64,000 nucleotides of DNA, from assembly GCF_900631955.1 (NCBI RefSeq), contig NZ_UZWD01000018.1, positions 1-64,000 on the forward strand, in the 5' to 3' direction. Below, in pieces: positions 1,276 through 31,860 of the stretch. Numbering within the stretch: the stretch's first letter is position 1; each line of letters opens with the position of its first letter. The stretch is from Devosia equisanguinis (GTDB lineage: Bacteria; Pseudomonadota; Alphaproteobacteria; Rhizobiales; Devosiaceae). Under the pieces are notes generated by a model. The model was not told the origin of the DNA. It did no database searches and was given only the letters and a program-made list of their open reading frames with translations. The translations under genes were made by a program, and so were the position numbers.

Positions 1276-4185
1276 TTAGGCGGTAAAGACGCCCCAAGTA
1301 GCGGAAAAGTCCACGAGACCAACGATCTTGGCAGCATGATCGTTAGCGTCAAGAACATTATTGGCAGTGGCGTTGGAGAAGAGATACGTGTTGCCTTCGA
1401 ACTGGAAGAACTTGGTACCTGCGCCAGTAGCCGCAGCTTCAACGAAAGCCAGATCAAGCGTGGTGGCGCTTGCGGTCAAGGCTACCTTCACCGCCTGATT
1501 AGCAACCAGACCGTTAAGGGCGACACCGTTGAAGTTAAGAACGTCAGTCGTAGACTTGGCGTCGTTCGTCTCCTTCACCGCATCGAAACCAATGATAGTA
1601 TCGAGCTTATCGTAGGTGGAACGAATGTTCACGGTGTCCTTGCCAGCACCGAGGGTGATGGACTCGACCAGATCAGCTTTACCGGTATAGGTCAGACCAT
1701 TGCCAATTTCACCGGCATTGGCACCAAAGGACTGTACGTTGGTCAAGCCAGACGCATCAACAGTCGTCAGCTTGCTGCCAAGAGTATTGTCAATGGTAGC
1801 CGAACCATTACCCGAGAGCGTAACACTGTTCAGGTAGGCATTACCAACCACCGGAGAGACTGCAACGTCGGCCGTTGTAATAGATACAGACGCAAGCTGA
1901 TCGTCGTTGGCAGCATTACCACCGCTCTTCAGTACGATATTGGCCGTAAGTACGTCACCGGACAAGACCACAGCAGTCGGAGCAGTATTCGAAGCGTTAA
2001 CGTTCAGCGTCAAATCGGCGCCAAAAGCCTTAACGCTGCCGGAACCAGTCGAAGTGAGGTTGAGGTTGCCGCCCTGCGCATCAGCTTCAGTGCCTGCATC
2101 CGCACCATCGGCCTTGTAGCCAGTGGCGTATGCCTCGATGCTTGCCTTAGTGGTGACGGCAACAGCAGATGCTTCGGTGATCTTGTCTCCGGCATTACCA
2201 GCAAAGGTATAAGCAGTGAAAGCAAGCTTTGACGCATCAACAACCGCATCAGAGTTGCCGGTAAACTCGACTTGCTCAACATTTTTGATGGCATTGTTGA
2301 ACAGGACATAGTCTTCAGCAATCAGAGACTTGCCAGCCAGAGACAGCGTGTCAACGCCTTCGCCACCATCGATGGAGGTGCGAGTGTTCAAAGTGCCAGT
2401 GAAGATGATCTTGTCATCACCAGCACCTGCGTTGATAGTAGTCGTACCGGTGCCCGTGGTCTGCACCGTGATCTCGTCATTGCCTGCGCCAGTATTGACG
2501 AGAGCAGAGACGGTTGCACTTGTAACTGTGTTGATCGTCACCTTGTCTGCACCGGACCCGGTAGTGACAGTTTTCACATTCGTACCAGCGGTGGTGAAAG
2601 TTACAGCACCAGTGCTTGCAGCTGCTTCAATTGCGGTAACATTCTTCGTGCTGGCACCATCCTGAGTAAACGTCAAAGTAGTGGTGACGGCAGAATTAAC
2701 GGAGATGGTTTCCACGTCCTTACCAGCGGCAACAGCAAGAGCCAGCGACTGATCCGGGACAGCCACACCCTGCTGCGTGATAGCGACGACAGGAGCTGCA
2801 ACGGCACCAGTAACCGCAAAATTAGCAGCGGTCACATCCGGCACGCTGGTATTAGCGGACTTCGACACAAAAGTAACAACCCCGCCTGGACCAGCAGTTG
2901 CGGTCCAGTTTGCTGCCGCTCCGTTATAAGCGGTAACAAATGCAGCAGCTTGGGCGTCGGCATTCGCCAGTGGCGCACTGGCTACCGTGTAAACGCGACC
3001 ATCAAACGTAACAGTATCGCCATCCGCACCGGCTGCAGTGAAAGTAGCAGTAAAAGTCTCTGTCGCACCGGCTGCGCCAGCGACGGATGCGTTCGCAACA
3101 GCACCCGAAACGATCACAGAAGAAACGGCCTTACCGCCAACACTGAGGTTAACGACGTTATCTGTCGCGTCCTTGACGCCGTCAAGATTCACAGCGACTG
3201 AGGCGGCGGCATCAGCAGCAGTGACGGACAAAGTACCGCTGGTATCAATGTTCTTGAAACCAGCCGTGGAAGTATCTGCAAGCTTGGTAACAGCAGACGC
3301 CTTACCAATCTGGTTCACAACTTCAACGCCAGCAAACTTGGACGCATCGACAGCAGAACCAGCACCCGCGTGACCAGCAGCAGAAGCGGCAACGGTGTTG
3401 TCGATGTTGATGGTTTCGATATTCGACGTGCTGTACAGCGTCTGATTAAAGCCAGTCTTGACTTCAACATTCAGCGTATCACGACCACCAGCACCATCGA
3501 AGGAATCCGAGGAATTCCAAGTGGTAGCATCAGCGCCCGACACATTGTTAGTTGCAATGACCTTGAACAGATCATTAGCAGAGGTGCCGATAAAATTGTC
3601 GATACCAACAGTGGTTTCGAAGGTGTCGCCGGTGACGACGTTGTCGAAGAAGGTGTCGACCTTTGCATTGGCCGCGACAACCGATGCATCAGACGCATCG
3701 ACATTAGCAAGCACGCTGCCAGCAGACGACTTGGCGGCAGCATTGAACTCGAAGCTCGGCGTATTGGCGGCCTGATCAACCCAGTTGGACGCAACAGCAA
3801 CCTTGTTAGCCAGAACCTGGCCATCGGTGTTGTTGGGGTTGGTGTTGGCGTTTGCCTGGATCTCGGCAATGATCTGACCCGGGGTGGTTGCACCCGAAGC
3901 GAGCTTGCCAGCGTAGTAAGCAAGGCCTTCAGCATCCGGAGCGCGATTGAACAGGTTCTGGTAAACCTGGTTCAGGAAGTTCTGAGCGCTGGCGACGTTC
4001 GGCAGGGCCAGGTAGGGATAGGCGGCCAGGGCTTCCGGGGAAGCAGCAAAGGAGTCAGCGATGTCAGCGAGCGAAACGCCAGCGTTGACACGGCCGATCC
4101 AGTAGTTCAGGCCTTCCGGATCGGGGGCGCGGTTGTAGTAACCAACATAGAGCTGAGTGATCAGCTGTGCTGTGGTGAGTGCCAT
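1276..4185 (-). CDS. S-layer-like DUF4214 protein with RTX-type motifs, probable T1SS substrate
   Basis: The protein has 969 residues. The N-terminus carries two DUF4214 units (about residues 1-145), with the hallmarks NRAPDPEGLNYW and NRAPDAEGLAYY. A long Ala/Thr/Val/Asn-rich, beta-type region follows, with a few RTX-like turns near residues 570-630 (GAGNDEI, GAGDDKI, DGGEGVDTLSL). It has no cysteine and no Sec signal peptide, and it ends in an aliphatic/aromatic tail (SATWGVFTA). This profile is typical of type I secreted surface or S-layer proteins such as Caulobacter RsaA, although I see no direct homology to RsaA. A T1SS exporter pair lies at 9994-13095. The ATG is preceded by AGAGG. A strong terminator follows the gene and an inverted repeat sits in the putative promoter, both suggesting high, regulated expression. 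It could instead be a large adhesin. Confidence 0.85.
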   Translation of the reverse strand: MALTTAQLITQLYVGYYNRAPDPEGLNYWIGRVNAGVSLADIADSFAASPEALAAYPYLALPNVASAQNFLNQVYQNLFNRAPDAEGLAYYAGKLASGATTPGQIIAEIQANANTNPNNTDGQVLANKVAVASNWVDQAANTPSFEFNAAAKSSAGSVLANVDASDASVVAANAKVDTFFDNVVTGDTFETTVGIDNFIGTSANDLFKVIATNNVSGADATTWNSSDSFDGAGGRDTLNVEVKTGFNQTLYSTSNIETINIDNTVAASAAGHAGAGSAVDASKFAGVEVVNQIGKASAVTKLADTSTAGFKNIDTSGTLSVTAADAAASVAVNLDGVKDATDNVVNLSVGGKAVSSVIVSGAVANASVAGAAGATETFTATFTAAGADGDTVTFDGRVYTVASAPLANADAQAAAFVTAYNGAAANWTATAGPGGVVTFVSKSANTSVPDVTAANFAVTGAVAAPVVAITQQGVAVPDQSLALAVAAGKDVETISVNSAVTTTLTFTQDGASTKNVTAIEAAASTGAVTFTTAGTNVKTVTTGSGADKVTINTVTSATVSALVNTGAGNDEITVQTTGTGTTTINAGAGDDKIIFTGTLNTRTSIDGGEGVDTLSLAGKSLIAEDYVLFNNAIKNVEQVEFTGNSDAVVDASKLAFTAYTFAGNAGDKITEASAVAVTTKASIEAYATGYKADGADAGTEADAQGGNLNLTSTGSGSVKAFGADLTLNVNASNTAPTAVVLSGDVLTANIVLKSGGNAANDDQLASVSITTADVAVSPVVGNAYLNSVTLSGNGSATIDNTLGSKLTTVDASGLTNVQSFGANAGEIGNGLTYTGKADLVESITLGAGKDTVNIRSTYDKLDTIIGFDAVKETNDAKSTTDVLNFNGVALNGLVANQAVKVALTASATTLDLAFVEAAATGAGTKFFQFEGNTYLFSNATANNVLDANDHAAKIVGLVDFSATWGVFTA

Positions 4186-4578: not shown

Positions 4579-4905
4579 ATGTTGGCGAAGATGGGCCAGG
4601 CCCAGAGCAGCGAAACCACTGAACTGCGGCAGGCCGCCGGCGCGTGGATGCGCGAGGCGCGCGAGGCGCGCGGCATTTCGCAGCGCGAATTGGCCAAACT
4701 CTTGCAGCTGGACTATTATACCTTCATCTCGCAGCTGGAAAACGGTCGCGGCCGCATTCCGCCGAACCGCTATCGCGACTGGGCGGAAGCGCTGGGGATG
4801 GACCACAAAATATTCGCCAAGCAATTGCTGATGTATTACGATCCCGTCACGTACGAGATCCTGTTCGCTGACGATGTGACCGCGGCGGGCCATCAGGAGG
4901 GCTGA
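4579..4905 (+). CDS. XRE-family helix-turn-helix transcriptional regulator
   Basis: The protein has 108 residues from the chosen ATG, which has GGAGA 8 bases upstream; the frame is open further upstream but without a comparable ribosome site. The Cro/CI-type HTH spans about residues 15-75: LRQAAGAWMREAREARG, then ISQRELAKLLQLDYYTFISQLENG and IPPNRYRDWAEALG. The ending (FAKQLLMYYDPVTYEILF) recalls small regulators found beside surface and capsule loci in Hyphomicrobiales. It overlaps the next gene by one base (TGATG) with a strong AGGAGG before that start, so the two are translationally coupled. It may regulate the surrounding surface genes or the divergent S-layer-like gene; the target is inference. 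Confidence 0.85.
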   Translation: MLAKMGQAQSSETTELRQAAGAWMREAREARGISQRELAKLLQLDYYTFISQLENGRGRIPPNRYRDWAEALGMDHKIFAKQLLMYYDPVTYEILFADDVTAAGHQEG

Positions 4906-6599
4906 TGTCCACAGTGCTGAGCTTTCCGGCGGCGGGTGAGGCCCGGTCCGGTTCCGGCGGCGATTGGAGCCGGCAGGAACTGGCCGATCTTTATCGCGTC
5001 GAGGCTCTGCTCATCCAGGCAAATATGCGCATCGAGACCGAGCGCGGCACATCCGACGAGGGTGAGCCGTGGTTCGTGTTTTGCCGCCCGGATGGCGACG
5101 TGTTCGTGCACCTCTGCCGAATCGACGGGCTGTACCTGCTCGATAGCCCGGGGCTCGACACGCCGCTGCGCGGGAGCGATTTCGCGGGGCTGATCGATCA
5201 GTTCGTGCGCGGGGTGGCGGCGCGGGCGGCCACCAGCAATGTGGTGCAGCTGCGCAAGGCGCGGCATGACAGCGTGGTGCGGTTGCATCCGGGCGTGATG
5301 ATGGCGGCGCTGATCTGGTCGCTGTATCTGGCCAGCGATCACCTGATGGAAGCCGCGCATGCGGCGGAGGCGTCGCTGGATGGTGTCGACGATGCGCCGA
5401 TGGGGCCGGTGGCGCTGAGCGATACCGACGCATTGCAGATCATTCAGGCCATCGAGGCGCAGCTGCGGGCCGAAGAGGCCGGGGAACAGCCGTCCGGGGA
5501 TGGCGCAGCGCATGGCGTGCAGGCGCGGGCCGGCGTCGAGGTGGCGCGCGATCACCATGGCGAAAGCGGGCGCAGCGGTTTTGGCGGGCATGTGGCCACG
5601 GGCAGCCTGGCGGCGACGCTGACGGCGATTGCGGCTACCTATGGATTGCACCTGGCGACACAGACCGATGGCGAGAGCGAAAAGTCGAGCGAGGTTGCGC
5701 AGGCCGAAACGATCCGCCTGGCAGTCTTGCCGGAGCATGAGGTCGTGGTTGCCGCAGTGGTGCGCGAAGAGAGCACCGAGCCGGTGCGGTTCGTGCACGA
5801 GGCGGCAGACCGGGTGGTGGTGAGCGGGCCGCAGGTGGCGAGCGTCGCGGATCTGGTCGTGGTTTCGCACTATGTGCCGATCGAAGAGCCGAATTTCGAG
5901 CATTGGGCCGGAAATGTACTGGCGGCTCCCACAAAATTCGCGCCGGCGGCACCGGTATTCGTGGCGATGCCCGAACAGGTGGCGGTAGCGGCGCGGAGCA
6001 CGAGCGAGTCGGTGGGCAATCAGAAGAGCGCCGACGTCAAGGCGCTGCTGGCGGCGGCCGAGCAGCATCTGGGTGTGCTCAAGACGTTTTCGCTTGGCGG
6101 AACGGTGGTTTCGGCGACGTTTGAACTGCTGACGCCGATCGTTGCGAGCAAGGATGGGACCGGACTGCTGACGGCGACCGACCTGGTGGCGGCCATCAAT
6201 GCGGAAGCCCCCCCTGCCCCCTATGATGCGCCCTCGCTGGCCCCCAAGGACAGCGACATCATCATGCTGCCCAGCCTGCCGGTTCCGGTGGTTGGCGGCA
6301 CGTCGCCGAATGGCGGGGGAGGCACGACACAGCCGAACAAGCCCTCGGTCAATGGCAATAATAGCGGCTTTGCGGACTATGATGCCCGCGCGCAGTCGTT
6401 CATCCTCGATTTCATGATGAAGTCTGACAAGATCGAGATGATCAAGATGGACACGGCATTGGTGCTGATCGACCTGACGGCGATCGACCAGCCGACGGAC
6501 CGCTATGTGTCCAAGAGCTGGGTGGTGGACGACATCATGACCATCACCGCTATCGGCCATTACGCCGATTTCTACGCCAGCGGCATGCTTTTCGCGTGA
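4905..6599 (+). CDS. Uncharacterised membrane-associated protein coupled to XRE regulator
   Basis: I do not recognise a named family for these 564 residues. The first 120 residues form a compact soluble region (WSRQELADLYRVEALL, WFVFCRPDGDVFVHLCRIDG, FAGLIDQFVRG). Two hydrophobic segments lie near residues 128-146 (HPGVMMAALIWSLYLASDHL) and 228-247 (TGSLAATLTAIAATYGLHLA). A long low-complexity Ala/Val/Glu-rich region follows, with Pro/Gly-rich linkers near residues 440-490, then a more ordered end (FILDFMMKSDKIEMIKMDTALVLIDL). It could be membrane-bound with both soluble parts on one side. Its start codon overlaps the XRE gene's stop, so the pair probably acts together, and the glycosylation module follows 79 bases later. 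Confidence 0.75.
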   Translation: MSTVLSFPAAGEARSGSGGDWSRQELADLYRVEALLIQANMRIETERGTSDEGEPWFVFCRPDGDVFVHLCRIDGLYLLDSPGLDTPLRGSDFAGLIDQFVRGVAARAATSNVVQLRKARHDSVVRLHPGVMMAALIWSLYLASDHLMEAAHAAEASLDGVDDAPMGPVALSDTDALQIIQAIEAQLRAEEAGEQPSGDGAAHGVQARAGVEVARDHHGESGRSGFGGHVATGSLAATLTAIAATYGLHLATQTDGESEKSSEVAQAETIRLAVLPEHEVVVAAVVREESTEPVRFVHEAADRVVVSGPQVASVADLVVVSHYVPIEEPNFEHWAGNVLAAPTKFAPAAPVFVAMPEQVAVAARSTSESVGNQKSADVKALLAAAEQHLGVLKTFSLGGTVVSATFELLTPIVASKDGTGLLTATDLVAAINAEAPPAPYDAPSLAPKDSDIIMLPSLPVPVVGGTSPNGGGGTTQPNKPSVNGNNSGFADYDARAQSFILDFMMKSDKIEMIKMDTALVLIDLTAIDQPTDRYVSKSWVVDDIMTITAIGHYADFYASGMLFA

Positions 6600-6678
6600 T
6601 ATCGGCCGCTGGCCGTTGCGAAAGGTGAAGGACGGGGATAGAGCCGTCCGCCTCCGCTCAACAACCGGCGATAGAGCT

Positions 6679-8313
6679 ATGAATAGAATTTCCATGAGTT
6701 CCGTGCGCGCGCACTGGCTCAACATTGCCGGTTTTGTCGCGTCCTGCCTCGTCGGCGCGCTGTTTCTCTGGATTATTACGCCCGATGATTTCATCAAGGG
6801 CTATTCCAGCTACTGGCAGTCCCAGGTCGAGGACGTATCCCAGTACATATCCGGCTATCGGGCCTATCTCGCGGCGCCATGGCAGTGGCCGCTGCTCGGC
6901 ATTCCGTCGCTGAACTGGCCGCATGGCACGACATTGACTTTCGTCGATGCGATTCCCGCCTTTTCCTTCGTGCTCAAGCTGCTCAACACGGTCATCCATG
7001 TCCCGCTCAATCCGCTCGGGTACTGGATGCTGGTCTGTTATGGCATGCAGGGCGGGGCGGCCTGGCTGCTCGGGCGGCAGCTGGCCGGCTCGGACCTGCT
7101 GCGCGTCGGGCTGGTCGTCGCGCTCTGCATCCTCATGCCGTCGCTGACGGCACGCATGGGTCATTCCAGCCTGCAGGCGCATTTCCTGCTGCTGCTGGCG
7201 CTGACCCTCTACTTCCGCGGACGCGCGGCGGCCCGGCCCGACATCGTCTTGTGGACCGTGCTGCTGCTGGTTTCGTTCTACGTCAATTTCTACATTACCG
7301 CGATGGTCGCGGCGGTGATGGTGGCAAGCACCGGCGACCGCTGGCTCAAGACGCGCAAGGCTGGGGAAGTGCTGGCGAGCGTCGTGCCTGTCATTGCGGT
7401 TGTGGCCAGCGTGCCAATCATGTTGGGCACGGCGTTCGGTCAGGCGGTGCCCGATACCGGCTTCGGCTTCTACTCGATGAATGTCCTGTCGCCGATCGGC
7501 CACGGCTTCCTGGTCCGGCTGCCCTTCTACGTGCCCGGCACGGGCGGACAATATGAAGGCTATAACTATCTCGGTCTTGGACTGATCGCGCTCCTTGCCC
7601 TCAGTGTCTGGCTGCGACAGCGGCAGGGCAAGACCGAGCCAGCCGGGGCTGCTTCATACTTCGGACCGGTGCTGGTCTGCATTTTGGCGCTCTGCGTCAT
7701 CTATGCGCTGTCCAATCATGTCTATGTCAGCGACGTGCAGGTGCTCGAGTGGCAAATTCCGTCATTCCTGACCGGATTGTTCGAAGCCTTCCGGTCTTCG
7801 GGTCGATTCTTCTGGGTGGTCTCCTATGCCCTTGTTGCCGTTGCGGCGCTTAGCCTTGGTCGTGTCGCGCTGCCGCTCCGCGCGATATTGGTGGTTGTCG
7901 CCCTGGTCATCCAGCTGGCAGACATGATCCCGACCTATCGCGAGGTGGGACATAGTCTGGAGCGCGAGCCGCATATTCTTGCCGATATGGATGAGTGGCG
8001 GGCGGAACTGGCGGGGGTAACCACCATTCATGCTTTCCCGAAGTTCAAATGCCCCGGGGGCTATGCGCGGGAAGTGCTACCCCTGCAGTCGGTGGCGGCC
8101 GAGGGTGGCTATAATCTGACTACCGGCTTTATTTCGCGCTATGGCGCCGATTGCGAGGCCATTGCATCCGAGATCGATGCCTCTGACCCGGCGACATCGG
8201 CTTATGTCTTTGCGACGACGCATTTCACGCCAGAGCAGATTGCCAGTTACATGCCGGAAAATGCCCAGTGCAAGACGCTGGAGATCTGGTCGATTTGCAG
8301 AGTCACGCCATGA
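6679..8313 (+). CDS. Polytopic membrane protein, DUF6311-like, putative lipid-linked sugar transferase
   Basis: From the ATG at 6679 the protein has 544 residues; upstream in-frame codons read as non-coding leader. It has about ten hydrophobic segments, beginning WLNIAGFVASCLVGALFLWI. The first periplasmic loop contains SYWQSQVEDVSQYISGYRAYL and LNWPHGTTLTFVDAIP, which resemble DUF6311 and the GtrII/GT-C style of multi-membrane glycosyltransferases. A soluble tail of about 130 residues contains CPGGYAREVLPLQ. The stop overlaps the GT2 gene start (ATGA), and GT2 and GtrA follow. That is the layout of Gtr modules that glucosylate O-antigen or other envelope glycans: flippase, undecaprenyl-phosphate sugar synthase and final transferase. 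The function follows from this context. Confidence 0.75.
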   Translation: MNRISMSSVRAHWLNIAGFVASCLVGALFLWIITPDDFIKGYSSYWQSQVEDVSQYISGYRAYLAAPWQWPLLGIPSLNWPHGTTLTFVDAIPAFSFVLKLLNTVIHVPLNPLGYWMLVCYGMQGGAAWLLGRQLAGSDLLRVGLVVALCILMPSLTARMGHSSLQAHFLLLLALTLYFRGRAAARPDIVLWTVLLLVSFYVNFYITAMVAAVMVASTGDRWLKTRKAGEVLASVVPVIAVVASVPIMLGTAFGQAVPDTGFGFYSMNVLSPIGHGFLVRLPFYVPGTGGQYEGYNYLGLGLIALLALSVWLRQRQGKTEPAGAASYFGPVLVCILALCVIYALSNHVYVSDVQVLEWQIPSFLTGLFEAFRSSGRFFWVVSYALVAVAALSLGRVALPLRAILVVVALVIQLADMIPTYREVGHSLEREPHILADMDEWRAELAGVTTIHAFPKFKCPGGYAREVLPLQSVAAEGGYNLTTGFISRYGADCEAIASEIDASDPATSAYVFATTHFTPEQIASYMPENAQCKTLEIWSICRVTP

Positions 8314-9672: not shown

Positions 9673-9993
9673 TTTGCCGGCGGCCGGATGCTCCGCTACG
9701 TGGATGCCCGACCCAGATGCGCCCCTGCCCAAGCAATGACCCAAATGGCCGGAACAAGACCGCTACGCGCAGCGCGCCATTGCGCTCCCCGCCGCCTGCC
9801 AATTGCGCCGCCGGAGGCGCTGCGAACAGGCTGCAGAAGACGTCACCAAACAGTGTGATGAGGTCGCACCAATTGGCGATGTTTCTGCCTGCAATTTCCG
9901 ATAATGGGCTGTTATATGTTGGCGTGGCACTGTATTGGAGACTGCCGTTCATGACCGGCATTTTTCCGCGGCGACCTTTTGCGCCCTCAGGGA
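9673..9993. other. Gene-free gap before the T1SS operon
   Basis: About 320 bases separate the GtrA gene from the T1SS exporter. No frame looks protein-like. The right half becomes more AT-rich (near TTCCGATAATGGGCTG and TTATATG), as expected of a promoter region for the exporter operon, but I cannot point to a clear -35/-10 pair or terminator. Confidence 0.5.
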
Positions 9994-11733
9994 ATGAGTG
10001 AAAGCAACATTATGGCGACACAGAATCCGTTCAAAGCGGCTCTTCAGACCTATCGTACGATCCTGGTGGCAACGATCGTGTTCAGCGTTGCCATCAATCT
10101 GCTGATGTTCGTGTCGCCCTTGTATATGCTGCAGGTCTACGATCGCGTGCTGCACAGCCGCAGCGAGACGACGCTGTTGATGATCACTTTCATCGCACTG
10201 GCGCTGCTCGGCATTTACGCCATTCTCGAATGGATCCGCTCGCGCGTGCTGGTTCGCGCCGGCATGCGGTTCGACGAAATGATCGCCAAGGCGCTGTTCA
10301 ACCGCGTGGTGACCAGCACGATCCGCCAGCCCAACGGCAAATCCGAATTCGTGCTCGCCGACGTCGACCGGCTGCGCGAGTTCCTTACCGGCTCGGGCCT
10401 GATTGCCTTGTGCGACGTGCCGTGGGTGCCGATCTTCCTGCTCGTCTGCTTCCTCTTCCATCCTATGGTGGGCTGGGTGGCTCTTTGTGGTGCAGTCATT
10501 GTGCTGGCGCTGGCGCTGGCCAACGAATTCTTGACCAAGAAGACGCTGAATGAGGCTTCGGGCATGGGCCAGTCGGCCCAGCACTTCGCCAATACTACGC
10601 TGCAGAATGTGGAAGCCATCCGTGCCCTTGGCATGGAAGGCAGCCTGCGCAGCCGCTGGCACGACATGCATCGGGGCATGTTGGTCAAGCAGGCGATCGC
10701 CAGCGATCGGGCGGGCGCCATCCAGTCTCTCTCCAAATTCGTACGCATGGGCCTGCAGACGGCGATCCTGGGCGTCGGCGCCTACTTGGTGCTCGAGGGC
10801 GAAATCTCGCCCGGCTCGATGATCGCCTGTTCGATCCTCATGGGCCGCGCGCTACAGCCGGTTGATCAGGTCGTCGGCCAGTGGAAGCAGTTCGTTGGCG
10901 CTCGCCAGGCCTATGGCCGTTTGTCGAACCTGTTCAAGCAGATGCCCGAACAGGAAGAAAAAACCGCCCTGCCCGCGCCGTCCGGTCGGCTTTCGATCAA
11001 TGGCCTGGCGGTAGTGGCACCCGGCGCCCGCACCGCCCTCTTGCAGGGCGTCACTTTCGACGTGCAGCCTGGCGAGGCCGTGGCCCTGGTGGGCCCGAGC
11101 GGCGCAGGCAAGTCGAGCCTGATGCGCGCCCTGGTCGGCATCTGGCCGGCCTTTTCCGGCAGCATCCGCCTCGACGGCGCCGAGTTGCAGCACTGGGATC
11201 CGGACGTGCTGGGCAAGCATCTGGGCTATCTGCCGCAGTCGGTTGAGCTGTTCAACGGCACAGTGGCCGAGAACATTGCCCGCTTCCAGGCTGACGCCGA
11301 CGACAAGGACGTGCTGGCTGCCGCCACCCAGGCGCGCGTGCACCAGATGATCCAGAACCTGCCGGACGGCTACAACACCCAGATCGGCATTGGCGGTCGC
11401 TCGCTTTCGGGCGGGCAGCGGCAGCGTATCGGTCTGGCCCGCGCGCTCTATGGCAACCCTTCGCTGATCATTCTGGACGAACCCAACGCCAATCTCGACA
11501 GTGAAGGCGAAGAGTCGCTATTCCAGATCGTCCAGGAGCTCAAAGCCCAGGGCAAGGCAATCCTGTTCGTCAGCCACAAGATGAGCCTCGTAAGTCTGGC
11601 CGAAAAGGCGCTGATCCTGGCCGAAGGCCGCATGCGCTCCTTCGGCCCGACGCAGGAACTGCTCAAGATCAAGCCGGCACTGAAACCCGTGCAGCCACCG
11701 ACCGACCCCACTCCGACCCGCAGCATTGCTTAA
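9994..11733 (+). CDS. Type I secretion ABC transporter, PrtD/HlyB family
   Basis: From the ATG at 9994 the protein has 579 residues; an ATG at 10012 (MATQNPF) is equally possible because neither has a strong ribosome site. An exporter membrane domain with about six helices (residues 20-310, including LQVYDRVLHSRSETTL) is fused to a nucleotide-binding domain. The Walker A motif GPSGAGKSS lies near residue 367, LSGGQRQR near 471, and Walker B LIILDEPNANLD near 490, followed by the H-loop SHK. There is no N-terminal C39 peptidase domain, so it is of the PrtD type that exports RTX proteins by uncleaved C-terminal signals. The HlyD partner follows after 9 bases. Likely cargoes are the DUF4214 and M10 proteins here. 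No TolC-type outer membrane gene is in the window. Confidence 0.93.
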   Translation: MSESNIMATQNPFKAALQTYRTILVATIVFSVAINLLMFVSPLYMLQVYDRVLHSRSETTLLMITFIALALLGIYAILEWIRSRVLVRAGMRFDEMIAKALFNRVVTSTIRQPNGKSEFVLADVDRLREFLTGSGLIALCDVPWVPIFLLVCFLFHPMVGWVALCGAVIVLALALANEFLTKKTLNEASGMGQSAQHFANTTLQNVEAIRALGMEGSLRSRWHDMHRGMLVKQAIASDRAGAIQSLSKFVRMGLQTAILGVGAYLVLEGEISPGSMIACSILMGRALQPVDQVVGQWKQFVGARQAYGRLSNLFKQMPEQEEKTALPAPSGRLSINGLAVVAPGARTALLQGVTFDVQPGEAVALVGPSGAGKSSLMRALVGIWPAFSGSIRLDGAELQHWDPDVLGKHLGYLPQSVELFNGTVAENIARFQADADDKDVLAAATQARVHQMIQNLPDGYNTQIGIGGRSLSGGQRQRIGLARALYGNPSLIILDEPNANLDSEGEESLFQIVQELKAQGKAILFVSHKMSLVSLAEKALILAEGRMRSFGPTQELLKIKPALKPVQPPTDPTPTRSIA

Positions 11734-11742: not shown

Positions 11743-13095
11743 ATGTCCCTCGCTACCCTCTCAGGCGACGACTCCCAGGACCTTGCCTATGGCAAGAGCG
11801 TGCGCAATCAGGAGTTTTCTCCGCGCCGCTATGTGGTCCTCGGCTATATCACGCTGGTATTGACCTTTGGCGTGTTCGGCGTCTGGGCCTTCACCGCTCC
11901 GCTGGCCAGCGGCGTGGTGGCCGGTGGCACGGTGTCGGTGGAATCGAGCCGCAAGACCGTTCAGCATCTTGAGGGCGGTATCGTCGCTGAGATCCTGGCG
12001 CGCGAAGGCGAGATCGTGGAGGCCGGCCAGGCGGTTTTGCGGCTGGAATCGACCCAGGCGCAGAGCAATTACGCCTTCCTCAGCTCGCGGCTTTCCATGC
12101 TGCAGGCACAGGAAGCCCGGCTGATCGCGGAAAGCACCAATGCGCCGACGCTGGTCATTCCCGATGCACTGCGCAATTCCACGAGCCCGGAAGTGCAGCA
12201 GCAGGTGGCGTTGCAGGAAACGCTGTTCGAGGATCGCACCACAAGCCGCGACGGGCAGATCGCCATCTTCACTTCGCGTGTCGGGCAGGTGAACGAGGCC
12301 ATCAACGGGCTGCTGCTGCAGCGCGACGCCATCGAAGGGCAGATGACGTCTCTGACCGACGAAATCACCCGCATGACGCGGGGCCAGGAAAGCGGCATCG
12401 TTGCCACCAACCAATTGTCGTCGATGAACCGCTCGCGCCTCGAATTGCAGGGTGAGCTGGGCCGACTGACCTCGGAAATCGCCAAGCTGCGGCAGACAAT
12501 CTCGGAGACGGAACTGCAGATCGTGCAGTTGCGGCAGGAATTCGTGGAGCGCGCCAGCGGCGAATTGCGCGATCTGCGCGAAATGCTGAACGAAACCACC
12601 GAGCGGGCCAATGTGGCGCGGGACGTGCTGGACCGCACCGTGGTGCGGGCGCCGGTGCGCGGCAAGCTGCAGAACATCCGCGTGCACACGGTAGGCGGCG
12701 TGATCCGTCCCGCCGAGCCGGTGATGGACATCATCCCGCTCGACGACGACCTGATCATCTCGGCGCAGGTGCGCCCGATCGACATCGACAGCGTCTCGGT
12801 GGGCCAGCAGGCGGAAGTCCGCTTCCCGGCTTTTTCGTCCAAAACCACGCCGGCGATCTTCGGCACCATTTCGGTGGTGTCGCAGGACGTAATCGAGCCG
12901 ACCAATCCCAATATGGCGCCCTATTACAGCGCCCGTATCGAGGTGCGGGATTCGGAAGTGCCGCAGGATATTCGCGAGCGGCTGTTGCCGGGCATGCCGG
13001 TGGACGTGATCGTCTCCACTGGCGAGCGCACCCTGGCCGAATATTTCATCCGCCCGATGTCGGACATGTTCCACAAGGGCATGCGAGAGAAATAG
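11743..13095 (+). CDS. HlyD family type I secretion periplasmic adaptor
   Basis: The protein has 450 residues and the start is preceded by AAGGAACG. It has a short cytoplasmic N-terminus, one membrane helix (about residues 28-52), and the lipoyl/barrel half-motif VSVESSRKTVQHLEGGIVAEI. Long coiled coils follow (about 95-290, rich in Gln/Glu/Arg), then the second barrel half RTVVRAPVRGKLQNIRVHTVGGVI and an HlyD-type C-terminus with LLPGMPVDVIVSTGERT. It bridges the inner-membrane ABC exporter to an outer-membrane TolC channel encoded elsewhere. It forms a two-gene operon with the exporter and is followed by a terminator. Confidence 0.93.
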   Translation: MSLATLSGDDSQDLAYGKSVRNQEFSPRRYVVLGYITLVLTFGVFGVWAFTAPLASGVVAGGTVSVESSRKTVQHLEGGIVAEILAREGEIVEAGQAVLRLESTQAQSNYAFLSSRLSMLQAQEARLIAESTNAPTLVIPDALRNSTSPEVQQQVALQETLFEDRTTSRDGQIAIFTSRVGQVNEAINGLLLQRDAIEGQMTSLTDEITRMTRGQESGIVATNQLSSMNRSRLELQGELGRLTSEIAKLRQTISETELQIVQLRQEFVERASGELRDLREMLNETTERANVARDVLDRTVVRAPVRGKLQNIRVHTVGGVIRPAEPVMDIIPLDDDLIISAQVRPIDIDSVSVGQQAEVRFPAFSSKTTPAIFGTISVVSQDVIEPTNPNMAPYYSARIEVRDSEVPQDIRERLLPGMPVDVIVSTGERTLAEYFIRPMSDMFHKGMREK

Positions 13096-13145: not shown

Positions 13146-13226
13146 TTTGGGCATGCGCTTTCCATCTCGCCCGGTAGGGGTGAGAACGATTGGTGCGGCG
13201 CGGCTCCCTACCCCGTTCAAAACAAT

Positions 13227-13273
13227 GCCTCGCCACGGTGACAAAGCGCGGATGACCGGCTATCACCCGAGGC
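13227..13273 (+). promoter_or_regulatory. Structured leader before manC
   Basis: Two nested inverted repeats can form one long stem: GCCTCG (13227-13232) with CGAGGC (13268-13273), and GGTGA (13237-13241) with TCACC (13263-13267). It ends about 24 bases before the chosen manC start. Just upstream, GGTAGGGG and CCCTACC form another pairing. This may be a 5' untranslated control structure, or simply the proximal boundary of the operon. Confidence 0.3.
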
Positions 13274-13296
13274 AAGACAATCAACATTCGACGCAG

Positions 13297-19207: not shown

Positions 19208-22200
19208 CCCGCATCCTGATCGACCTGCAAGCCTGCCAGAACGAGAGCAGGTTTCGCGGGCTGGGCCGCTATGTGAAGAATATGGCGCGCGAGATCGCCA
19301 AGATCGCCGCGCCGGGCAGCGTGCACCTGTTGCTCAACAGCAGGTTCGGACACACTATCCTGCCGCTGCGACAGTATTTTTCGGACTTCGTGCCGGATGC
19401 GAACATCCATGTAGTGGAATTGCTCGACCAGGCGGACGACCGCTCGGAGCGTGGGCGGTGGCGCAATGATGCCTCGGCCCTGCTGCGCGAAGCCTATATC
19501 GAAATGCTGGCGCCCGACGTCGTGTTCATGCCCAGCTTCTTCGAAGGCTTTATCGACGACGTGGTGCTGAGCGTGCACCGGCTGTCGCGTGTGCCGGTGG
19601 TGGCGACGGTGCATGACCTGATCCCGCTGATCCTCGAAGAGCGCTATCTCAAGCCGGATCAGAACTATTCCCGCTTCTATCGCGGCAAACTGGCAGAGTT
19701 CGTTGGTGCCGACGGGTTAATCGCCATTTCCGAGCAGTCGTTCAAGGAAGCGGTGGAACTGCTGCATTATCCGGCCGAGAAGGCGGTAAATGCTTCGGAA
19801 GGCGCCGAGCCGGAGTTTCGGCCGCTGGGCCTGTCGGACGAGCAAAAGGCGGCCGCGCGCGCGCGGTTCGGGGTGGGTGACCAGTTCATCTTTTACACCG
19901 GCGGCGCAGACTCGCGCAAAAACCTCGATCGGCTGATGGCAGCCTTTGCGCGCCTGCCGCAAGCGCTGCGGCGCGAGCACCAACTGGTTCTGGCCGGCAG
20001 TATTTCGCCGGGCGAGCGGCAGCATTTGCTGGAAAAAGCCGATGCAGTTGGTCTCGATCGCAGCGAATACAAGCTGCTCGGCTTCGTCAGCGATGCTGAC
20101 CTGGTCGAGCTCTACAATCTCTGCGAAGTCTTCGTCTTTCCGTCGCTGCATGAAGGATTTGGGCTGCCGTGCCTCGAGGCCATGCAATGCGGGGCAGCGG
20201 TGATCGGCTCCAATGTCTCGAGCATCCCCGAAGTGATGGGCAATGACGACGCCATGTTCGATCCTCATTCGGTGGATGACATGGCGCGGCTGCTCGACCG
20301 GGTCCTGACCGACGACGCCTTTCGCGCCGCGCTGGTGGCCAAGGGCGCTGTGCAGGCAGCCAAGTTCTCCTGGAGCAAGAGCGCCGAAATAGCTTTGGCC
20401 ACGTTGCTGGAAACCGCGCAGCCGAATGAACCCGGCTCTGACTGGACTGCAACCAGGCTCCGCCTTGACGCGGTAGAACAGCAATTGATCGCGGCGCTCA
20501 AGACCCTGCCGGGCCAGTTCGGCCACCCCAGCGCGTCCGATCTCGCCCAGATTGCTCAGGCCATGGCGATCAACCGCGTGAGAGTGGCCAATCTCTTACG
20601 ATCCTATGACTTGCCCGAAGTCATCGACTGGCGCATCGAGGGCCCGTTCGACAGCAGCTACAGTCTGGCGCTGGTCAATCGCGAGTTGGCGCTGGGCTTG
20701 GAACAGACGGGGGCCCGCGCGGCACTGCATGCCTCCGAGGGGCCCGGTGATTACGAGGCGGACAAGGGGTTCCTAAAGGCCAATCCGCAAATAGCCGCCC
20801 TGCATGCTCGCTCGAGCGATAGCGCTGCTGCACAGGTCGTCAGTCGCAACATGTATCCGCCCCGAGCGGTGGACATGGACAGCCAGATCAATGGATTATC
20901 TTGCTACGCTTGGGAGGAGACTGGCTTTCCGTTCGCCTATGCCGAAGGCATCAACGAGGGTGCGCAATTCGTCACAGTGACGGCAGAGCACGTCAAGAAG
21001 GTGCTGATCGATGCCGGCGTGTCGGTGCCTGTGACCGTTGTGGGCAATGGCGTCGACCATTGGTTGGCGGTGGAGGCAGACAAGAGCTACCGCGTCGAGA
21101 CCGCGGGACACACTTTTTTGCACGTCTCGTCCTGCTTTCCGCGCAAGGGCGCCGATGTGCTGCTCAAGAGCTATGGCGCGGCGTTCCGCAAGGACGACGA
21201 TGTGCTGCTGGTGATCAAGACTTTTGCCAACCCGCACAACACCATCGAGCAGCAATTGGCGGCACTGCGCGCCACCAATCCGGACTTTCCAGCGGTGACG
21301 ATCATCATGGATGATCTCTCGGACGGTGCGCTGAAGGCGCTTTACGAACAGTGCGACACGCTGGTGGCGCCGAGCCGCGCAGAAGGTTTTGGCCTGCCGA
21401 TCGCGGAAGCCATGCTGAGCGGGCTGCATGTGATCACCACCGGCTGGAGCGGGCAGATGGATTTCTGCACGCCCGAAAACAGCGCGCTGATCGATTTTAC
21501 CTTTGCCTCGGCCTCAACTCACGAAGCCAGCAAGCCACTCAGCGCCTGGGCCGAGCCGGACGGCGAGCACCTGACGCAATTGCTGCGCGAGGCGCTGGAG
21601 CGCAAGGCCGGCGATGCCACCAAGACGCTATTGCCCCGCTGGAGCTGGGCCGAAGTGGCCCGTCGCAACCAGCAGGCGGCGCGCGCACTCAGCGTCGAGG
21701 CGCTGACCGCGGAGCCGAGGCTGGGCTGGGTGTCGACCTATCGCAAACGTTGCGGCATCGCCACCTATTCGGAGCATCTGCTCGATGTCTTGGGCATGCC
21801 CGCGATCATCCTCGCCGACGCCCCGGACGACTTGCCCACCGGCGAGCCCGAAAATATCGTCCGATGCTGGCGCGAGGGCAAGGTCGACGATTTTTCCAAC
21901 CTGCTAGCCGCCGTAAAACGGCACCAGCTGGATATGGTCGTTATCCAGTTCAACTACGGATTTTTCGACTTCGCTGCGTTCGGCAAGCTGCTCCACAGCC
22001 TGTGCGACGCCGGTACGCGGGTTGTGGTGACCATGCACGCGACCATTGACCCCGCACATGATCCCGACCGCAAGCTGGCCCATATCGCTGACGCCCTGGC
22101 GCGCTGCGATCGCCTGCTGGTGCACTCGATCACGGATCTCAACCGGCTGAAGGCGCTGGGCCTCGTCGACAATGTCGGGCTGTTTCCCCATGGCGTGCTC

Positions 22201-22842
22201 GCTTCGCCCGCCGGCAACACGTCGCGGCCTGTCGCCCATGCACCGGTGCACCTGGCCAGCTATGGCTTCTTCCTGCCCAATAAGGGGCTGATCGAACTGG
22301 TCGAGGCCGCCCGTCTGCTCAAGGCGGAAAACTTTGCCTTCAAGCTCGATATGGTCAATGCGGCCTTCCCGGCCGAAGTCTCACAAAAGCTGATCGAACA
22401 GGCGCGTGGATTGATCGACCGCTATGGGCTCGGCAGCGAGGTCAAGCTGCATACCGATTTCCTGCCCGACGCGGAGAGCCTGAGGCTGCTGTCACAGGCC
22501 GAAATCGTGGTCTATCCCTATCAAAGCACGGGTGAATCGGCGAGCGGCGCAGTGCGCTACGGCCTGGCGGCGGGCAAGGCCGTGGCGGTGACGCCGCTGC
22601 CGATTTTCGACGATGTGGCCGGCAGCGTCTTCGCCCTGCCGGGCATTTCCCCGGCCGATATCGCGACTGGACTCAAGCAATTGTCGCGCGACCTGCGTGC
22701 CAATGCCGCTGAAAGCCAGGCCGTGCTCGAGCGGGCGCAGCAATGGCGAGACGTGCATGCCTATCCGGTGCTCGGCCGCAAGCTGGCCGGTACGTTACGC
22801 GGCATTTTCCGCAACAGCCTCGACAAGGAAACCATGCACTGA
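19204..22842 (+). CDS. Three-domain GT4 glycosyltransferase, WbdA-like putative mannan polymerase
   Basis: The protein has 1212 residues. The first GT-B domain (about 1-405) opens RILIDLQACQNESRFRGLGRYV and has the donor motif HEGFGLPCLEAM near 315. The second (about 440-830) has SRAEGFGLPIAEAM near 722. The third (about 840-1205) opens LGWVSTYRKRCGIATYSEHLL and has a divergent donor block TGESASGAVRYGLAAGK near 1102. Multi-domain WbdA enzymes of E. coli O8 (three domains) and O9a (two) build repeating mannose linkages, one per active site. A three-site enzyme predicts a repeat with up to three linkage types, if all domains are active. The start overlaps the methyltransferase stop and the end overlaps the next GT4. 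Confidence 0.9.
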   Translation: MTRILIDLQACQNESRFRGLGRYVKNMAREIAKIAAPGSVHLLLNSRFGHTILPLRQYFSDFVPDANIHVVELLDQADDRSERGRWRNDASALLREAYIEMLAPDVVFMPSFFEGFIDDVVLSVHRLSRVPVVATVHDLIPLILEERYLKPDQNYSRFYRGKLAEFVGADGLIAISEQSFKEAVELLHYPAEKAVNASEGAEPEFRPLGLSDEQKAAARARFGVGDQFIFYTGGADSRKNLDRLMAAFARLPQALRREHQLVLAGSISPGERQHLLEKADAVGLDRSEYKLLGFVSDADLVELYNLCEVFVFPSLHEGFGLPCLEAMQCGAAVIGSNVSSIPEVMGNDDAMFDPHSVDDMARLLDRVLTDDAFRAALVAKGAVQAAKFSWSKSAEIALATLLETAQPNEPGSDWTATRLRLDAVEQQLIAALKTLPGQFGHPSASDLAQIAQAMAINRVRVANLLRSYDLPEVIDWRIEGPFDSSYSLALVNRELALGLEQTGARAALHASEGPGDYEADKGFLKANPQIAALHARSSDSAAAQVVSRNMYPPRAVDMDSQINGLSCYAWEETGFPFAYAEGINEGAQFVTVTAEHVKKVLIDAGVSVPVTVVGNGVDHWLAVEADKSYRVETAGHTFLHVSSCFPRKGADVLLKSYGAAFRKDDDVLLVIKTFANPHNTIEQQLAALRATNPDFPAVTIIMDDLSDGALKALYEQCDTLVAPSRAEGFGLPIAEAMLSGLHVITTGWSGQMDFCTPENSALIDFTFASASTHEASKPLSAWAEPDGEHLTQLLREALERKAGDATKTLLPRWSWAEVARRNQQAARALSVEALTAEPRLGWVSTYRKRCGIATYSEHLLDVLGMPAIILADAPDDLPTGEPENIVRCWREGKVDDFSNLLAAVKRHQLDMVVIQFNYGFFDFAAFGKLLHSLCDAGTRVVVTMHATIDPAHDPDRKLAHIADALARCDRLLVHSITDLNRLKALGLVDNVGLFPHGVLASPAGNTSRPVAHAPVHLASYGFFLPNKGLIELVEAARLLKAENFAFKLDMVNAAFPAEVSQKLIEQARGLIDRYGLGSEVKLHTDFLPDAESLRLLSQAEIVVYPYQSTGESASGAVRYGLAAGKAVAVTPLPIFDDVAGSVFALPGISPADIATGLKQLSRDLRANAAESQAVLERAQQWRDVHAYPVLGRKLAGTLRGIFRNSLDKETMH

Positions 22843-26701: not shown

Positions 26702-27991
26702 ATGAGCCAAACTCGCCAAAGCCAGAATGGCCTGCAGGCGGTGATCGATCTGGGGGCGCGGCGGCGGGCGCATAATAATGTGCTGCTGATCAAGGCCGCA
26801 CTGCCGGCGACGATCAGCGCCGCGCTTTTGGCCTTTGCCATCTATGTGCTGGTGATGGTCAGCGCCGACCGGGTCGACTGGCACAATATCCTGCCTGTCG
26901 GACTGGTCGTGGCCATGGTCCCCGCCATTGCCGTCAGCCTGCTGGTCATTGCCAGCCGCCGCAATCACCCCTTCAGCATGGCCGTGGCCGTGACGGTCTT
27001 TGCGCTGAGCTTTGCCATCTCCATCCTGGCGGCGACGCGTATTCCGGTGAGTTTCGTGGGTATCGCGCTGACCATTCCCTCAACCCTGCTCTGCGTCACG
27101 CTGGCGAACCTGGCCATGGCGCGGTCCCTCTCGCGCCGGGCGTGCCTCCTCGACTTTCCCGGCGCCGCGGCGGTGGCGCAAAAGCTCGATGGACGGGTGC
27201 AGGTGGTGTCGCCCGAAGAAATTGGGCCCGATATCCGGCGGGTGCTGATCGATCCGGCCTTTCACCACAGCGCCGAATGGGCGCCGGTCCTTGCGCGCCT
27301 CTATACGCGCGGGCTCGAAATGGAAGCCTGGCCGCGCTATCTGGAAACCTATGCCGGCCGCGTCGACATCGACAGTTTCGAGCTGGCCGATGTGTCCTAC
27401 AGCCCGAGCCAGATTTTCTACTATCGCTTCAAGCGGGTGGTCGATCTGGTCGGCGTGCTGGTGCTGGCCGTGCCGGTGCTGGTCGTGGGCGGTCTGCTCT
27501 GGCTCTATATCCGCCTCGTCGATGGCGGCCCATCCTTCTTCATCCAGGAGCGACGGGGTTATGGCGGTGGTACGTTCCGCCTCTACAAATTCCGCACCAT
27601 GTACAAGAATGCCGATGGCGCCTCGACCTCGGCCAATGATAGCCGCGTATTGCCGGGATGCCATCTGGTGCGGCAATTGCGCCTCGACGAGCTACCGCAA
27701 CTGATCAATATCGCGCGCGGCGAAATGAGCTTTATCGGGCCTCGCCCGGTCTCGGTGGCGATTGCAGAGGCGCTGGAAGCCCGTATTCCGCAATATATCA
27801 ACCGATCTATCCTTCTGCCCGGGCTCACCGGCTGGGCGCAGGTATCCCATGGCTATGCCGAAACGCAGGACGAGGAGATCGAAAAGCTCTCCTACGACCT
27901 CTACTATCTCAAGCACGTCTCCTTCGATCTCGACGTGATCATCTCCGTGCGCACGATCAAGACGCTTTTGTTGCGGAAAGGTGCGCGCTGA
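26702..27991 (+). CDS. ExoY/WcaJ-type sugar-phosphate transferase
   Basis: The protein has 429 residues. It has four N-terminal hydrophobic segments (about 28-145), a soluble middle, one more membrane segment near 245-270, and the catalytic bacterial sugar transferase domain (PF02397). Hallmarks are FYYRFKRVVDLVGVLVLAVP, GGTFRLYKFRTMY, RLDELPQLINI and GEMSFIGPRPV, then LPGLTGWAQVSHGY. Such enzymes start lipid-linked glycan assembly by moving a sugar-1-phosphate onto undecaprenyl phosphate. It could prime the mannan-type polymer or a separate exopolysaccharide. It stands alone behind a terminator, with no Wzx or Wzy gene nearby. Confidence 0.92.
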   Translation: MSQTRQSQNGLQAVIDLGARRRAHNNVLLIKAALPATISAALLAFAIYVLVMVSADRVDWHNILPVGLVVAMVPAIAVSLLVIASRRNHPFSMAVAVTVFALSFAISILAATRIPVSFVGIALTIPSTLLCVTLANLAMARSLSRRACLLDFPGAAAVAQKLDGRVQVVSPEEIGPDIRRVLIDPAFHHSAEWAPVLARLYTRGLEMEAWPRYLETYAGRVDIDSFELADVSYSPSQIFYYRFKRVVDLVGVLVLAVPVLVVGGLLWLYIRLVDGGPSFFIQERRGYGGGTFRLYKFRTMYKNADGASTSANDSRVLPGCHLVRQLRLDELPQLINIARGEMSFIGPRPVSVAIAEALEARIPQYINRSILLPGLTGWAQVSHGYAETQDEEIEKLSYDLYYLKHVSFDLDVIISVRTIKTLLLRKGAR

Positions 27992-29854: not shown

Positions 29855-29970
29855 GGTTAGCGGATGATTTCCCGCATGCTGACAATTTGAAGCCATTTTC
29901 CAACGGAGCCTGAAAGTCTGTTCTCTAGCACTGCAGTCAACCCACAACGCATCCTGGGATTGGCGCAGTT

Positions 29971-31860: not shown

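What the first reader, a model, noticed from the sequence alone, without database searches (positions are those of the whole stretch)
1276..31860. A surface locus combining T1SS, four DUF4214 proteins and a polymannan-type O-polysaccharide system
Four proteins with DUF4214 units (1276-4185, 24393-26528, 28080-29444, 29971-31860) bracket a T1SS exporter/adaptor pair and an ABC-dependent polysaccharide operon. They share a motif of the form F-N-R-x-P-D-x-E-G-L-x-Y-W. In Caulobacter, S-layer protein RsaA is exported by a T1SS and held by O-polysaccharide. The arrangement here suggests a parallel system in which DUF4214 serves as the glycan-anchoring or assembly domain for a structural protein, an accessory protein and two proteases. 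The gene content is seen; the anchoring role is inference.
Basis: partly seen in the sequence, partly recalled or inferred. Interest (0 to 1): 0.75.

Follow-up and report, generated by a model that had tools for sequence, protein, structure and literature searches.

The report
RsaA-like S-layer anchoring locus using DUF4214
A bacterium related to Devosia carries a gene block that appears to make, export and tether a protein coat to surface sugar chains, using a protein domain of unknown job that looks like a distant cousin of the one that anchors the well-studied Caulobacter coat.

Summary
The gene content is as described: four DUF4214 proteins, a PrtD/HlyD type I exporter and a Wzm/Wzt polysaccharide operon in one block. 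I read it as an RsaA-type S-layer system in which DUF4214 replaces RsaA's O-polysaccharide-binding domain. The two anchors look distantly homologous (profile-profile score 39; 300 column shuffles at most 24), though Foldseek does not link them. Both sit N-terminally in the coat-like protein and C-terminally in M10 proteases. The unnamed gene 4905-6599 accompanies both coat genes: 18 of 19 chosen anchor-positive genomes (14 of the 18 helped build the profile), 1 of 20 negatives. In 121 genomes of the family, 12 have DUF4214, all 12 with Wzt_C; 6 of the other 109 have Wzt_C. Named loci with N-terminal DUF4214 have Wzm/Wzt nearby in 14 of 39 cases, C-terminal ones in 0 of 33. Against: across the class, 9 of 11 DUF4214 genomes lack Wzt_C. 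Sugar binding and lattice formation are inferred; 'polymannan' is not shown. DUF4214 as a surface anchor is already suggested in print.

The parts
360..1163 (-). SapC-family protein, 267 aa, directly downstream of the coat-protein gene
   Evidence: Pfam PF07277 183.7 bits; a homologue in the stretches read in 8 of 11 other DUF4214 genomes
1276..4185 (-). Putative S-layer protein (P0001, 969 aa, no Cys, pI 4.15) with N-terminal tandem DUF4214 anchor
   Evidence: DUF4214 69.5 bits; residues 186-313 and 488-627 are 41% and 44% identical to one Caulobacteraceae RsaA homologue, E 3e-14 and 3e-13 in a five-protein database
3595..4185 (-). Anchor domain of P0001 (residues 1-197), all-helical model
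   Evidence: AlphaFold2 pLDDT 93.5; profile match to the RsaA N-terminal domain family, E 3.7e-5 for one comparison
4905..6599 (+). Conserved unnamed protein (ORF564, P0003), candidate S-layer biogenesis partner; conserved N-domain at 4938-5240
   Evidence: No convincing Pfam or PDB match for its N-domain; near the coat gene in Devosiaceae and Caulobacteraceae
6616..8313 (+). DUF6311 membrane protein, probable glycosyl-transfer step (function inferred)
   Evidence: PF19830 56.6 bits
8268..9245 (+). GT2 glycosyltransferase
   Evidence: PF00535 107.4 bits
9166..9672 (+). GtrA-like small membrane protein (name recalled from its sequence, not from a family search)
   Evidence: ORF; homologues beside GT2 in G081, G088 and G117
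9979..11733 (+). PrtD-type T1SS permease/ATPase
   Evidence: TIGR01842 719.6 bits, cut-off 510
11743..13095 (+). HlyD-type T1SS adaptor
   Evidence: TIGR01843 371.5 bits, cut-off 209
13147..14721 (+). ManC: mannose-1-phosphate guanylyltransferase / mannose-6-phosphate isomerase
   Evidence: PF00483 180.2 and PF01050 175.9 bits
14735..15871 (+). GT4 glycosyltransferase
   Evidence: PF00534 92.8 bits
15943..16737 (+). Wzm, polysaccharide ABC exporter permease
   Evidence: PF01061 76.6 bits
16734..17951 (+). Wzt, polysaccharide ABC exporter ATPase with carbohydrate-binding C-terminal domain
   Evidence: PF14524 129.7 bits; match over residues 35-399 to the solved ABC transporter 8dku, 279.6 bits
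17852..19207 (+). SAM methyltransferase of the polysaccharide operon
   Evidence: PF13489 52.9 bits; best solved match 3dli
19204..22842 (+). Three-domain GT4 glycosyltransferase
   Evidence: PF00534 in 3 stretches, 179.7 bits
22743..23966 (+). GT4 glycosyltransferase
   Evidence: PF00534 75.8 bits
24390..26528 (+). Second N-terminal DUF4214 protein (P0006, 712 aa, no Cys); no other Pfam match
   Evidence: DUF4214 50.9 bits; 32% identical to P0001 over its residues 9-295
26702..27991 (+). Polyprenyl-phosphate sugar-1-phosphate transferase
   Evidence: PF02397 162.3 bits
28068..29444 (+). M10 metalloprotease with RTX repeat and C-terminal tandem DUF4214 (P0008)
   Evidence: PF00413 40.1, PF00353 35.2, DUF4214 95.3 bits
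29971..31860 (+). Serralysin-type M10 metalloprotease with RTX repeats and C-terminal DUF4214 (P0009)
   Evidence: PF08548 47.7, PF00353 44.9, DUF4214 64.1 bits; serralysin model 184.7 bits, below cut-off 500

Best explanation
The block encodes an RsaA-type surface-layer system. Shown by sequence: a Cys-free acidic coat-like protein (P0001), a PrtD/HlyD exporter, a Wzm/Wzt polysaccharide exporter with GDP-mannose and sugar-transfer genes, and proteases carrying the same DUF4214 module at the other end. Inferred: P0001 leaves through the type I exporter, folds outside with calcium, and its N-terminal tandem DUF4214 domain grips the polysaccharide exported by Wzm/Wzt, while its C-terminal part assembles the coat. 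P0006 and the M10 proteases are held on the same polysaccharide by their own DUF4214 units and may edit or guard the coat (editing of the coat by SapA in Caulobacter is recalled, not from a call). The unnamed protein at 4905-6599 is a conserved partner, probably in export or assembly. DUF4214 is read as a divergent relative of the RsaA O-polysaccharide-binding domain.
For: RsaA_NTD family profile against 70 DUF4214 tandems: score 39.9 and 39.1, E 2.7e-5 and 3.7e-5; 300 column shuffles at most 24.3, 29 real family tiles at most 18.3. Under that alignment three helix starts of the two AlphaFold models agree within one residue, and RsaA's extra is its calcium/O-antigen loop. P0001 after the anchor matches one of five Caulobacteraceae RsaA homologues well, E 3e-14. 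The unnamed gene is in 10 of 11 other DUF4214 genomes and 8 of 8 chosen RsaA genomes, and in 0 of 14 and 1 of 6 chosen negatives (14 of the 18 positives had supplied rows of the profile). DUF4214 with Wzt_C: 12 of 12 against 6 of 109; 11 of 12 within 10.4 kb, about 1 expected (distance limit set after seeing the data). Same N-terminal coat / C-terminal M10 protease pattern with RsaA_NTD. N-terminal DUF4214 loci 14 of 39 with Wzm/Wzt, C-terminal 0 of 33.
Against: Foldseek with the DUF4214 model does not list RsaA among 32 matches, although the library holds it. The DUF4214 Pfam model does not match the Caulobacter vibrioides control genome, and single-sequence or profile-to-sequence searches do not link the families. 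P0001 has no match to any solved protein, RsaA included. A profile of C-terminal DUF4214 alone matches RsaA only at the motif (score 25.7; 200 shuffles up to 22.1). With RsaA as a single sequence the match was not clear of controls (5 of 945 at or above in one setting). Across the class, 9 of 11 DUF4214 genomes lack Wzt_C. RsaA's calcium loop falls in a gap of the alignment, so the binding chemistry must differ. 56 of 80 named loci show none of 15 marker genes. No binding, lattice or secretion data for this organism were available. Counts are not corrected for shared ancestry.
Confidence: 0.7

Rival explanations
1. DUF4214 is a surface-retention or oligomerisation module that binds protein, not sugar: it works like its other relatives, the phycobilisome linker domains, and the neighbouring polysaccharide genes merely share a surface-genes island.
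For: The significant matches among solved proteins are phycobilisome linkers (ApcE E 3.2e-6; Glr2806 E 1.3e-4). DUF4214 often occurs without Wzt_C across the class.
Against: RsaA_NTD, the nearest relative with a known ligand, binds O-polysaccharide (PMC6978808, passages read). N-terminal coat-like DUF4214 proteins sit beside Wzm/Wzt in 14 of 39 loci, C-terminal ones in 0 of 33. Some methyltransferases of polysaccharide loci carry DUF4214-like units: 4 of 9 scanned above Pfam's cut-off, but 8 of the 9 had been picked because the profile hit them.
Confidence: 0.2
2. DUF4214 is part of a type I secretion signal or folding aid for exported proteins and has no anchoring role.
For: In the two proteases and several other proteins of this genome it lies at the C-terminus, where type I signals lie.
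Against: In P0001, P0006 and 39 of 80 named loci it is N-terminal, and it occurs in methyltransferases that should stay in the cytosol.
Confidence: 0.07
3. P0001 is a loose exoprotein or adhesin held by DUF4214, not a crystalline S-layer.
For: No lattice evidence is available from sequence; other DUF4214 proteins in the same genome are an adhesin-like protein, subtilases and small RTX proteins.
Against: Composition and the post-anchor region resemble RsaA homologues, and the locus is built like the rsaA locus.
Confidence: 0.3

Closest known systems
RsaA S-layer system of Caulobacter crescentus (RsaA, type I exporter, O-polysaccharide)
   Same: Coat protein gene beside a PrtD/HlyD-type exporter; the same unnamed partner gene in 5 of 5 loci read; Cys-free acidic protein; related region after the anchor in one of five homologues; anchor domain distantly homologous
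   Different: Anchor is DUF4214, not PF19198; RsaA's calcium/O-antigen loop is missing; the polysaccharide exporter here has a Wzt_C domain, which the control C. vibrioides genome does not show
SapA protease of Caulobacter
   Same: M10 metalloprotease with RTX repeat and the anchor domain at the C-terminus
   Different: Window proteases score 30 and 122 bits against the SapA model (cut-off 1200) and carry DUF4214 in place of RsaA_NTD
DUF4214 surface proteins of segmented filamentous bacteria and Halomonas (PMC12780176, PMC11970703; passages read)
   Same: DUF4214 is suggested there as a surface-anchoring domain; 88 residues of a Halomonas DUF4214 protein were modelled on the Caulobacter S-layer protein
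   Different: The passages read describe no exporter or polysaccharide locus and no test of homology against controls
WzmWzt-type polysaccharide exporter with carbohydrate-binding domain (8dku, listed as 'ABC transporter'; the WzmWzt name is recalled)
   Same: Match to P0015 over residues 35-399, including the C-terminal domain
   Different: The exported sugar is unknown

Membership tests
RsaA-type S-layer protein | Gene beside a dedicated PrtD/HlyD-type type I exporter | tested here: met
   same arrangement in 5 of 5 Caulobacteraceae loci read
RsaA-type S-layer protein | N-terminal anchor of Pfam RsaA_NTD (PF19198) | tested here: not met
   P0001 matches only DUF4214 in Pfam at E 0.01; remote homology to RsaA_NTD by profiles
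RsaA-type S-layer protein | Lattice region homologous to RsaA | tested here: inconclusive
   41-44% identity over two stretches to one of five RsaA homologues, weaker to the others; no match to the solved C. crescentus protein; repeat-rich sequence
RsaA-type S-layer protein | Forms a two-dimensional lattice on cells | not testable with these tools
   Needs microscopy
RsaA-type S-layer protein | Anchor binds O-polysaccharide with calcium | not testable with these tools
   Needs a binding assay; RsaA's calcium loop falls in an alignment gap
DUF4214 (PF13946) | Profile match above the curated cut-off | tested here: met
   All four proteins
Protease SapA (NF051884) | Score above equivalog cut-off 1200 | tested here: not met
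   P0008 30 bits, P0009 121.6 bits
ABC-transporter-dependent O-polysaccharide system with chain-end recognition | Wzm plus Wzt with C-terminal carbohydrate-binding domain | tested here: met
Polymannan (O8/O9-type) O-antigen system | WbdA-type mannosyltransferases and WbdD-type capping enzyme (names recalled) | tested here: inconclusive
   P0016 best match is 3dli; P0017 matches general GT4 enzymes at E 1e-10; whether WbdA has a solved structure in that set was not checked; ManC is present

The most novel reading that the evidence does not exclude
DUF4214 and RsaA_NTD (with the phycobilisome linker domain as a further relative) form one superfamily, and in Gram-negative bacteria it is a general surface-polysaccharide anchor: one coat protein with an N-terminal anchor is encoded beside the polysaccharide and type I exporters, while proteases, adhesins and hydrolases with C-terminal anchors are scattered over the genome and decorate the same polysaccharide. 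The unnamed gene at 4905-6599 would be a shared, so far unrecognised S-layer biogenesis factor.
Probability: 0.4. Interest if true: 0.8.

Novelty: new variant of a known kind. Interest (0 to 1): 0.62.

Why it matters
DUF4214 has no assigned function in Pfam. Tying it to a Gram-negative S-layer anchor with a solved sugar complex (RsaA, PMC6978808) would give it a testable job, predict S-layer-like coats in some Devosia, Duganella, Rugamonas, Halomonas and Stutzerimonas strains (I did not check which of these have been reported; only Devosia was searched), and explain why proteases and adhesins in these bacteria share one module. The unnamed conserved gene beside both kinds of coat gene is a concrete candidate for S-layer biogenesis that can be deleted in Caulobacter.

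Tried and rejected
Direct sequence links between RsaA and DUF4214 failed: phmmer of RsaA against 5388 ORF segments gave nothing, and profile searches of the PDB gave phycobilisome linkers, not RsaA. RsaA as a single sequence against the profile was suggestive only: 26.2, with 0 of 60 shuffles and 0 of 150 controls at or above, in one setting; 23.0, with 0 of 400 shuffles but 5 of 945 controls at or above, in another. That is why I fetched RsaA relatives and compared profiles. Two weak RsaA hits in a sample of 385 genomes of the class look like chance (by eye a proton pyrophosphatase and a Calx-beta-like protein). RsaA relatives on plasmids: none. The paper search for the Caulobacter gene beside rsaA, by locus numbers recalled by me, listed only unrelated medical papers among the 10 of 157 shown. 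Foldseek did not link the folds. The idea that the DUF4214/Wzt_C link is general in the class was rejected.
Full report
What is there. The window belongs to a 4.13 Mb assembly. The best named relatives of its coat-protein anchor include Devosia and Maritalea, and contig-length matches put it in the genus Devosia (an inference). From 360 to 31860 the genes are: SapC; the 969-aa protein P0001 with an N-terminal DUF4214 tandem; an unnamed 564-aa protein (ORF564); DUF6311, GT2 and a GtrA-like protein; PrtD and HlyD; ManC, a GT4, Wzm, Wzt with Wzt_C, a methyltransferase, a three-domain GT4 and another GT4; P0006 with an N-terminal DUF4214 tandem; a sugar-phosphate transferase; and two M10 proteases with C-terminal DUF4214. 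Two tRNA genes follow at 31919-32241. The seven other DUF4214 genes of the genome are two subtilases, a cadherin-type protein, three small proteins (two with an RTX match) and a methyltransferase.

Is the association more than chance? In 121 genomes of the same family, DUF4214 occurs in 12 and Wzt_C in 18. All 12 are among the 18; the other 109 genomes have 6 (Fisher p 1.6e-12). This is not corrected for shared ancestry: 9 of the 12 are in one genus, for which I count 60 genomes in the table. In 11 of the 12 the nearest DUF4214 gene lies within 10.4 kb of Wzt_C, about 1 expected under random placement (the limit was set after seeing the distances, and for G076 the ORF edge was used); the twelfth, G118, has them on different contigs. 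PrtD is common in the family (87 of 121 over cut-off).

Synteny. I read 20-60 kb around Wzt_C in the 11 other positive genomes, and 6.7-20 kb in the 6 genomes with Wzt_C but no DUF4214, so the stretches are unequal. PrtD and HlyD are in 10 of 11, ORF564 in 9 of 11, SapC in 8 of 11, DUF4214 in 10 of 11; in the 6 controls none of these was found. PrtD genes over the cut-off in the controls lie on other contigs or, for one in G034, almost 1 Mb away; G082 has none over the cut-off.

Outside the family. Wzm or Wzt lies in the DNA held (up to 10 kb each side) for 15 of 80, type I genes for 9 of 80, both for 8 of 80; 56 of 80 show none of the 15 markers, and many loci are cut by contig ends. Split by position: N-terminal DUF4214 in longer proteins 14 of 39 with Wzm/Wzt and 9 of 39 with type I genes; C-terminal 0 of 33 and 0 of 33; the remaining 8 loci 1 and 0. 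The positives include Duganella, Rugamonas, Stutzerimonas and Halomonas; many of the C-terminal loci are from Marivita, so taxonomy is a confounder. In a sample of 385 genomes of the class, DUF4214 is in 11 and Wzt_C in 42, with only 2 genomes in both, one of them the window's own. Wzt_C is not a complete marker of O-polysaccharide export: the control genome of Caulobacter vibrioides does not match it.

Relation to RsaA. In Caulobacter crescentus the RsaA N-terminal domain (residues 2-243 modelled) binds the O-antigen, with a calcium loop at 77-100 (PMC6978808, passages read). Its Pfam family is RsaA_NTD, PF19198. A search of 149 genomes of what I take to be Caulobacteraceae found it in 13, with up to 18 matches scored per genome (a cap). 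A profile of 33 sequences (RsaA plus 32 segments) against 70 DUF4214 tandems aligned RsaA 62-153 with P0001 10-87, score 39.9, probability 74%, E 2.7e-5; a second alignment of 29 gave 39.1, 71% and 3.7e-5. These E-values are for one comparison. Controls: 300 column shuffles, mean 12.8, at most 24.3; reversed 12.2; 29 tiles of real families at most 18.3; the RsaA family itself 39.3 in that run. At the motif RsaA reads FFTGVAPSAAGLDFL, its homologue L168 (83% identical) FFTNRAPSAAGLDYL, and P0001 YYNRAPDPEGLNYW. The AlphaFold models (pLDDT 93.5 and 94.2) put the helices at matching places under this alignment: P0001 5-17, 23-34 and 67-79 fall on 57-69, 75-86 and 135-147; observed 58-69, 75-83 and 135-146. 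I did not compare the helices in the gapped part between them. What RsaA has in addition there is the calcium and O-antigen loop. Against this: Foldseek did not link the folds, though it found 6T72 at once for the RsaA-homologue model (TM 0.94), and a profile of only the 33 C-terminal DUF4214 domains matched RsaA at the motif alone (25.7; 200 shuffles up to 22.1).

Three further parallels. First, RsaA_NTD is N-terminal in the coat protein and C-terminal in two M10 proteases that pass the SapA cut-off (1229 and 1240 bits, cut-off 1200), the same two arrangements as DUF4214 in the window. [quoted passage not shown] papers not read). Second, P0001 matches an RsaA homologue (987 aa) right after the anchor: 41% over 134 columns, E 3e-14, and 44% over 149, E 3e-13, in a database of five proteins; the other four match less (E 6.5e-7, 1.5e-4, 1.6e-4, 0.05), and repeat-rich composition makes me treat this as inconclusive. 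Third, ORF564 homologues lie near rsaA in 5 of 5 Caulobacteraceae loci read. Its N-domain has ten invariant positions in 21 sequences, no PDB match below E 1 and no Pfam match better than E 0.09. Over 39 genomes chosen by me it is in 10 of 11 DUF4214-positive and 0 of 14 negative Devosiaceae, and in 8 of 8 RsaA-positive (of 13 known) and 1 of 6 negative Caulobacteraceae, the one being weaker (E 1e-17). Of the 18 positives, 14 had supplied rows of the profile; the four that had not (G118, G521, G537, G598) match as strongly, beside their coat-type gene. Five Caulobacteraceae carry a second, weaker copy elsewhere.

DUF4214 and sugars. Nine methyltransferases were scanned; eight had been picked from weak hits of the DUF4214 profile, so this is not a rate. 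DUF4214 is over Pfam's cut-off in 4 (L114, L108, the own-genome C76 protein, G097), below it in 4, and absent in the window's P0016. Eight of the nine come from polysaccharide loci. This hints that the domain follows the polysaccharide also inside the cell.

Mechanism. Shown: gene content, conservation, homology signals. Inferred from known families: type I export of P0001, P0006 and the proteases, in which I saw no signal peptide by eye; Wzm/Wzt export of a polysaccharide recognised by Wzt_C. Inferred by analogy: binding of that polysaccharide by DUF4214, lattice assembly, coat editing by the proteases. The sugar is unknown; ManC indicates GDP-mannose, not a polymannan.

What is known. In the held library DUF4214 appears in four papers; I read passages of two. 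One says that likely surface-anchoring domains of segmented filamentous bacteria include DUF4214 (PMC12780176). The other reports that modelling aligned 88 residues of a Halomonas DUF4214 protein to the Caulobacter S-layer protein, suggests an anchored enzyme, and found this gene mutated in 7 of 8 evolved populations (PMC11970703). The other two papers were not opened. In the listings of searches and the passages read I saw no statement that RsaA_NTD and DUF4214 are one family; most subscription papers are not held. ORF564 has no name to search by; one search by recalled locus numbers listed nothing relevant.

Noticed in passing
window 4905-6599; alignment A4: Unnamed protein with a conserved N-domain (DWxxQExA...RGxSDEGxPW...H..RIDG) that accompanies both DUF4214- and RsaA-type coat genes; no convincing Pfam or PDB match.
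   Followed up: partly
A2 against PDB: DUF4214 tandems match phycobilisome linker proteins (ApcE, E 3.2e-6), suggesting a wider superfamily.
   Followed up: no
L114:5527-6681, L108:217-1365, L025:1440-2306, L156:3962-5587: Methyltransferases, mostly of polysaccharide loci, fused to a DUF4214 unit above Pfam's cut-off.
   Followed up: partly
G521, G516, G598, G640: Some Caulobacteraceae carry 10-18 RsaA_NTD matches; proteins scanned include M10 proteases, a GH113-like protein, a CHRD protein and Ig-like proteins: a display module, not only an S-layer anchor.
   Followed up: partly
window 1-4000 and 24001-26000: G+C is 0.54-0.56 over the two N-terminal DUF4214 genes, against 0.58-0.66 in the other 2-kb steps.
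   Followed up: no
window 31919-32241: tRNA-Pro and tRNA-Gln genes sit right at the end of the block, a possible island border.
   Followed up: no
L147 (G076 C1, about 3843664-3846290): A 351-aa ORF 56-59% identical to the C-terminal third of P0001 lies next to a separate 367-aa DUF4214 protein; the coat gene may be split or shortened there.
   Followed up: no
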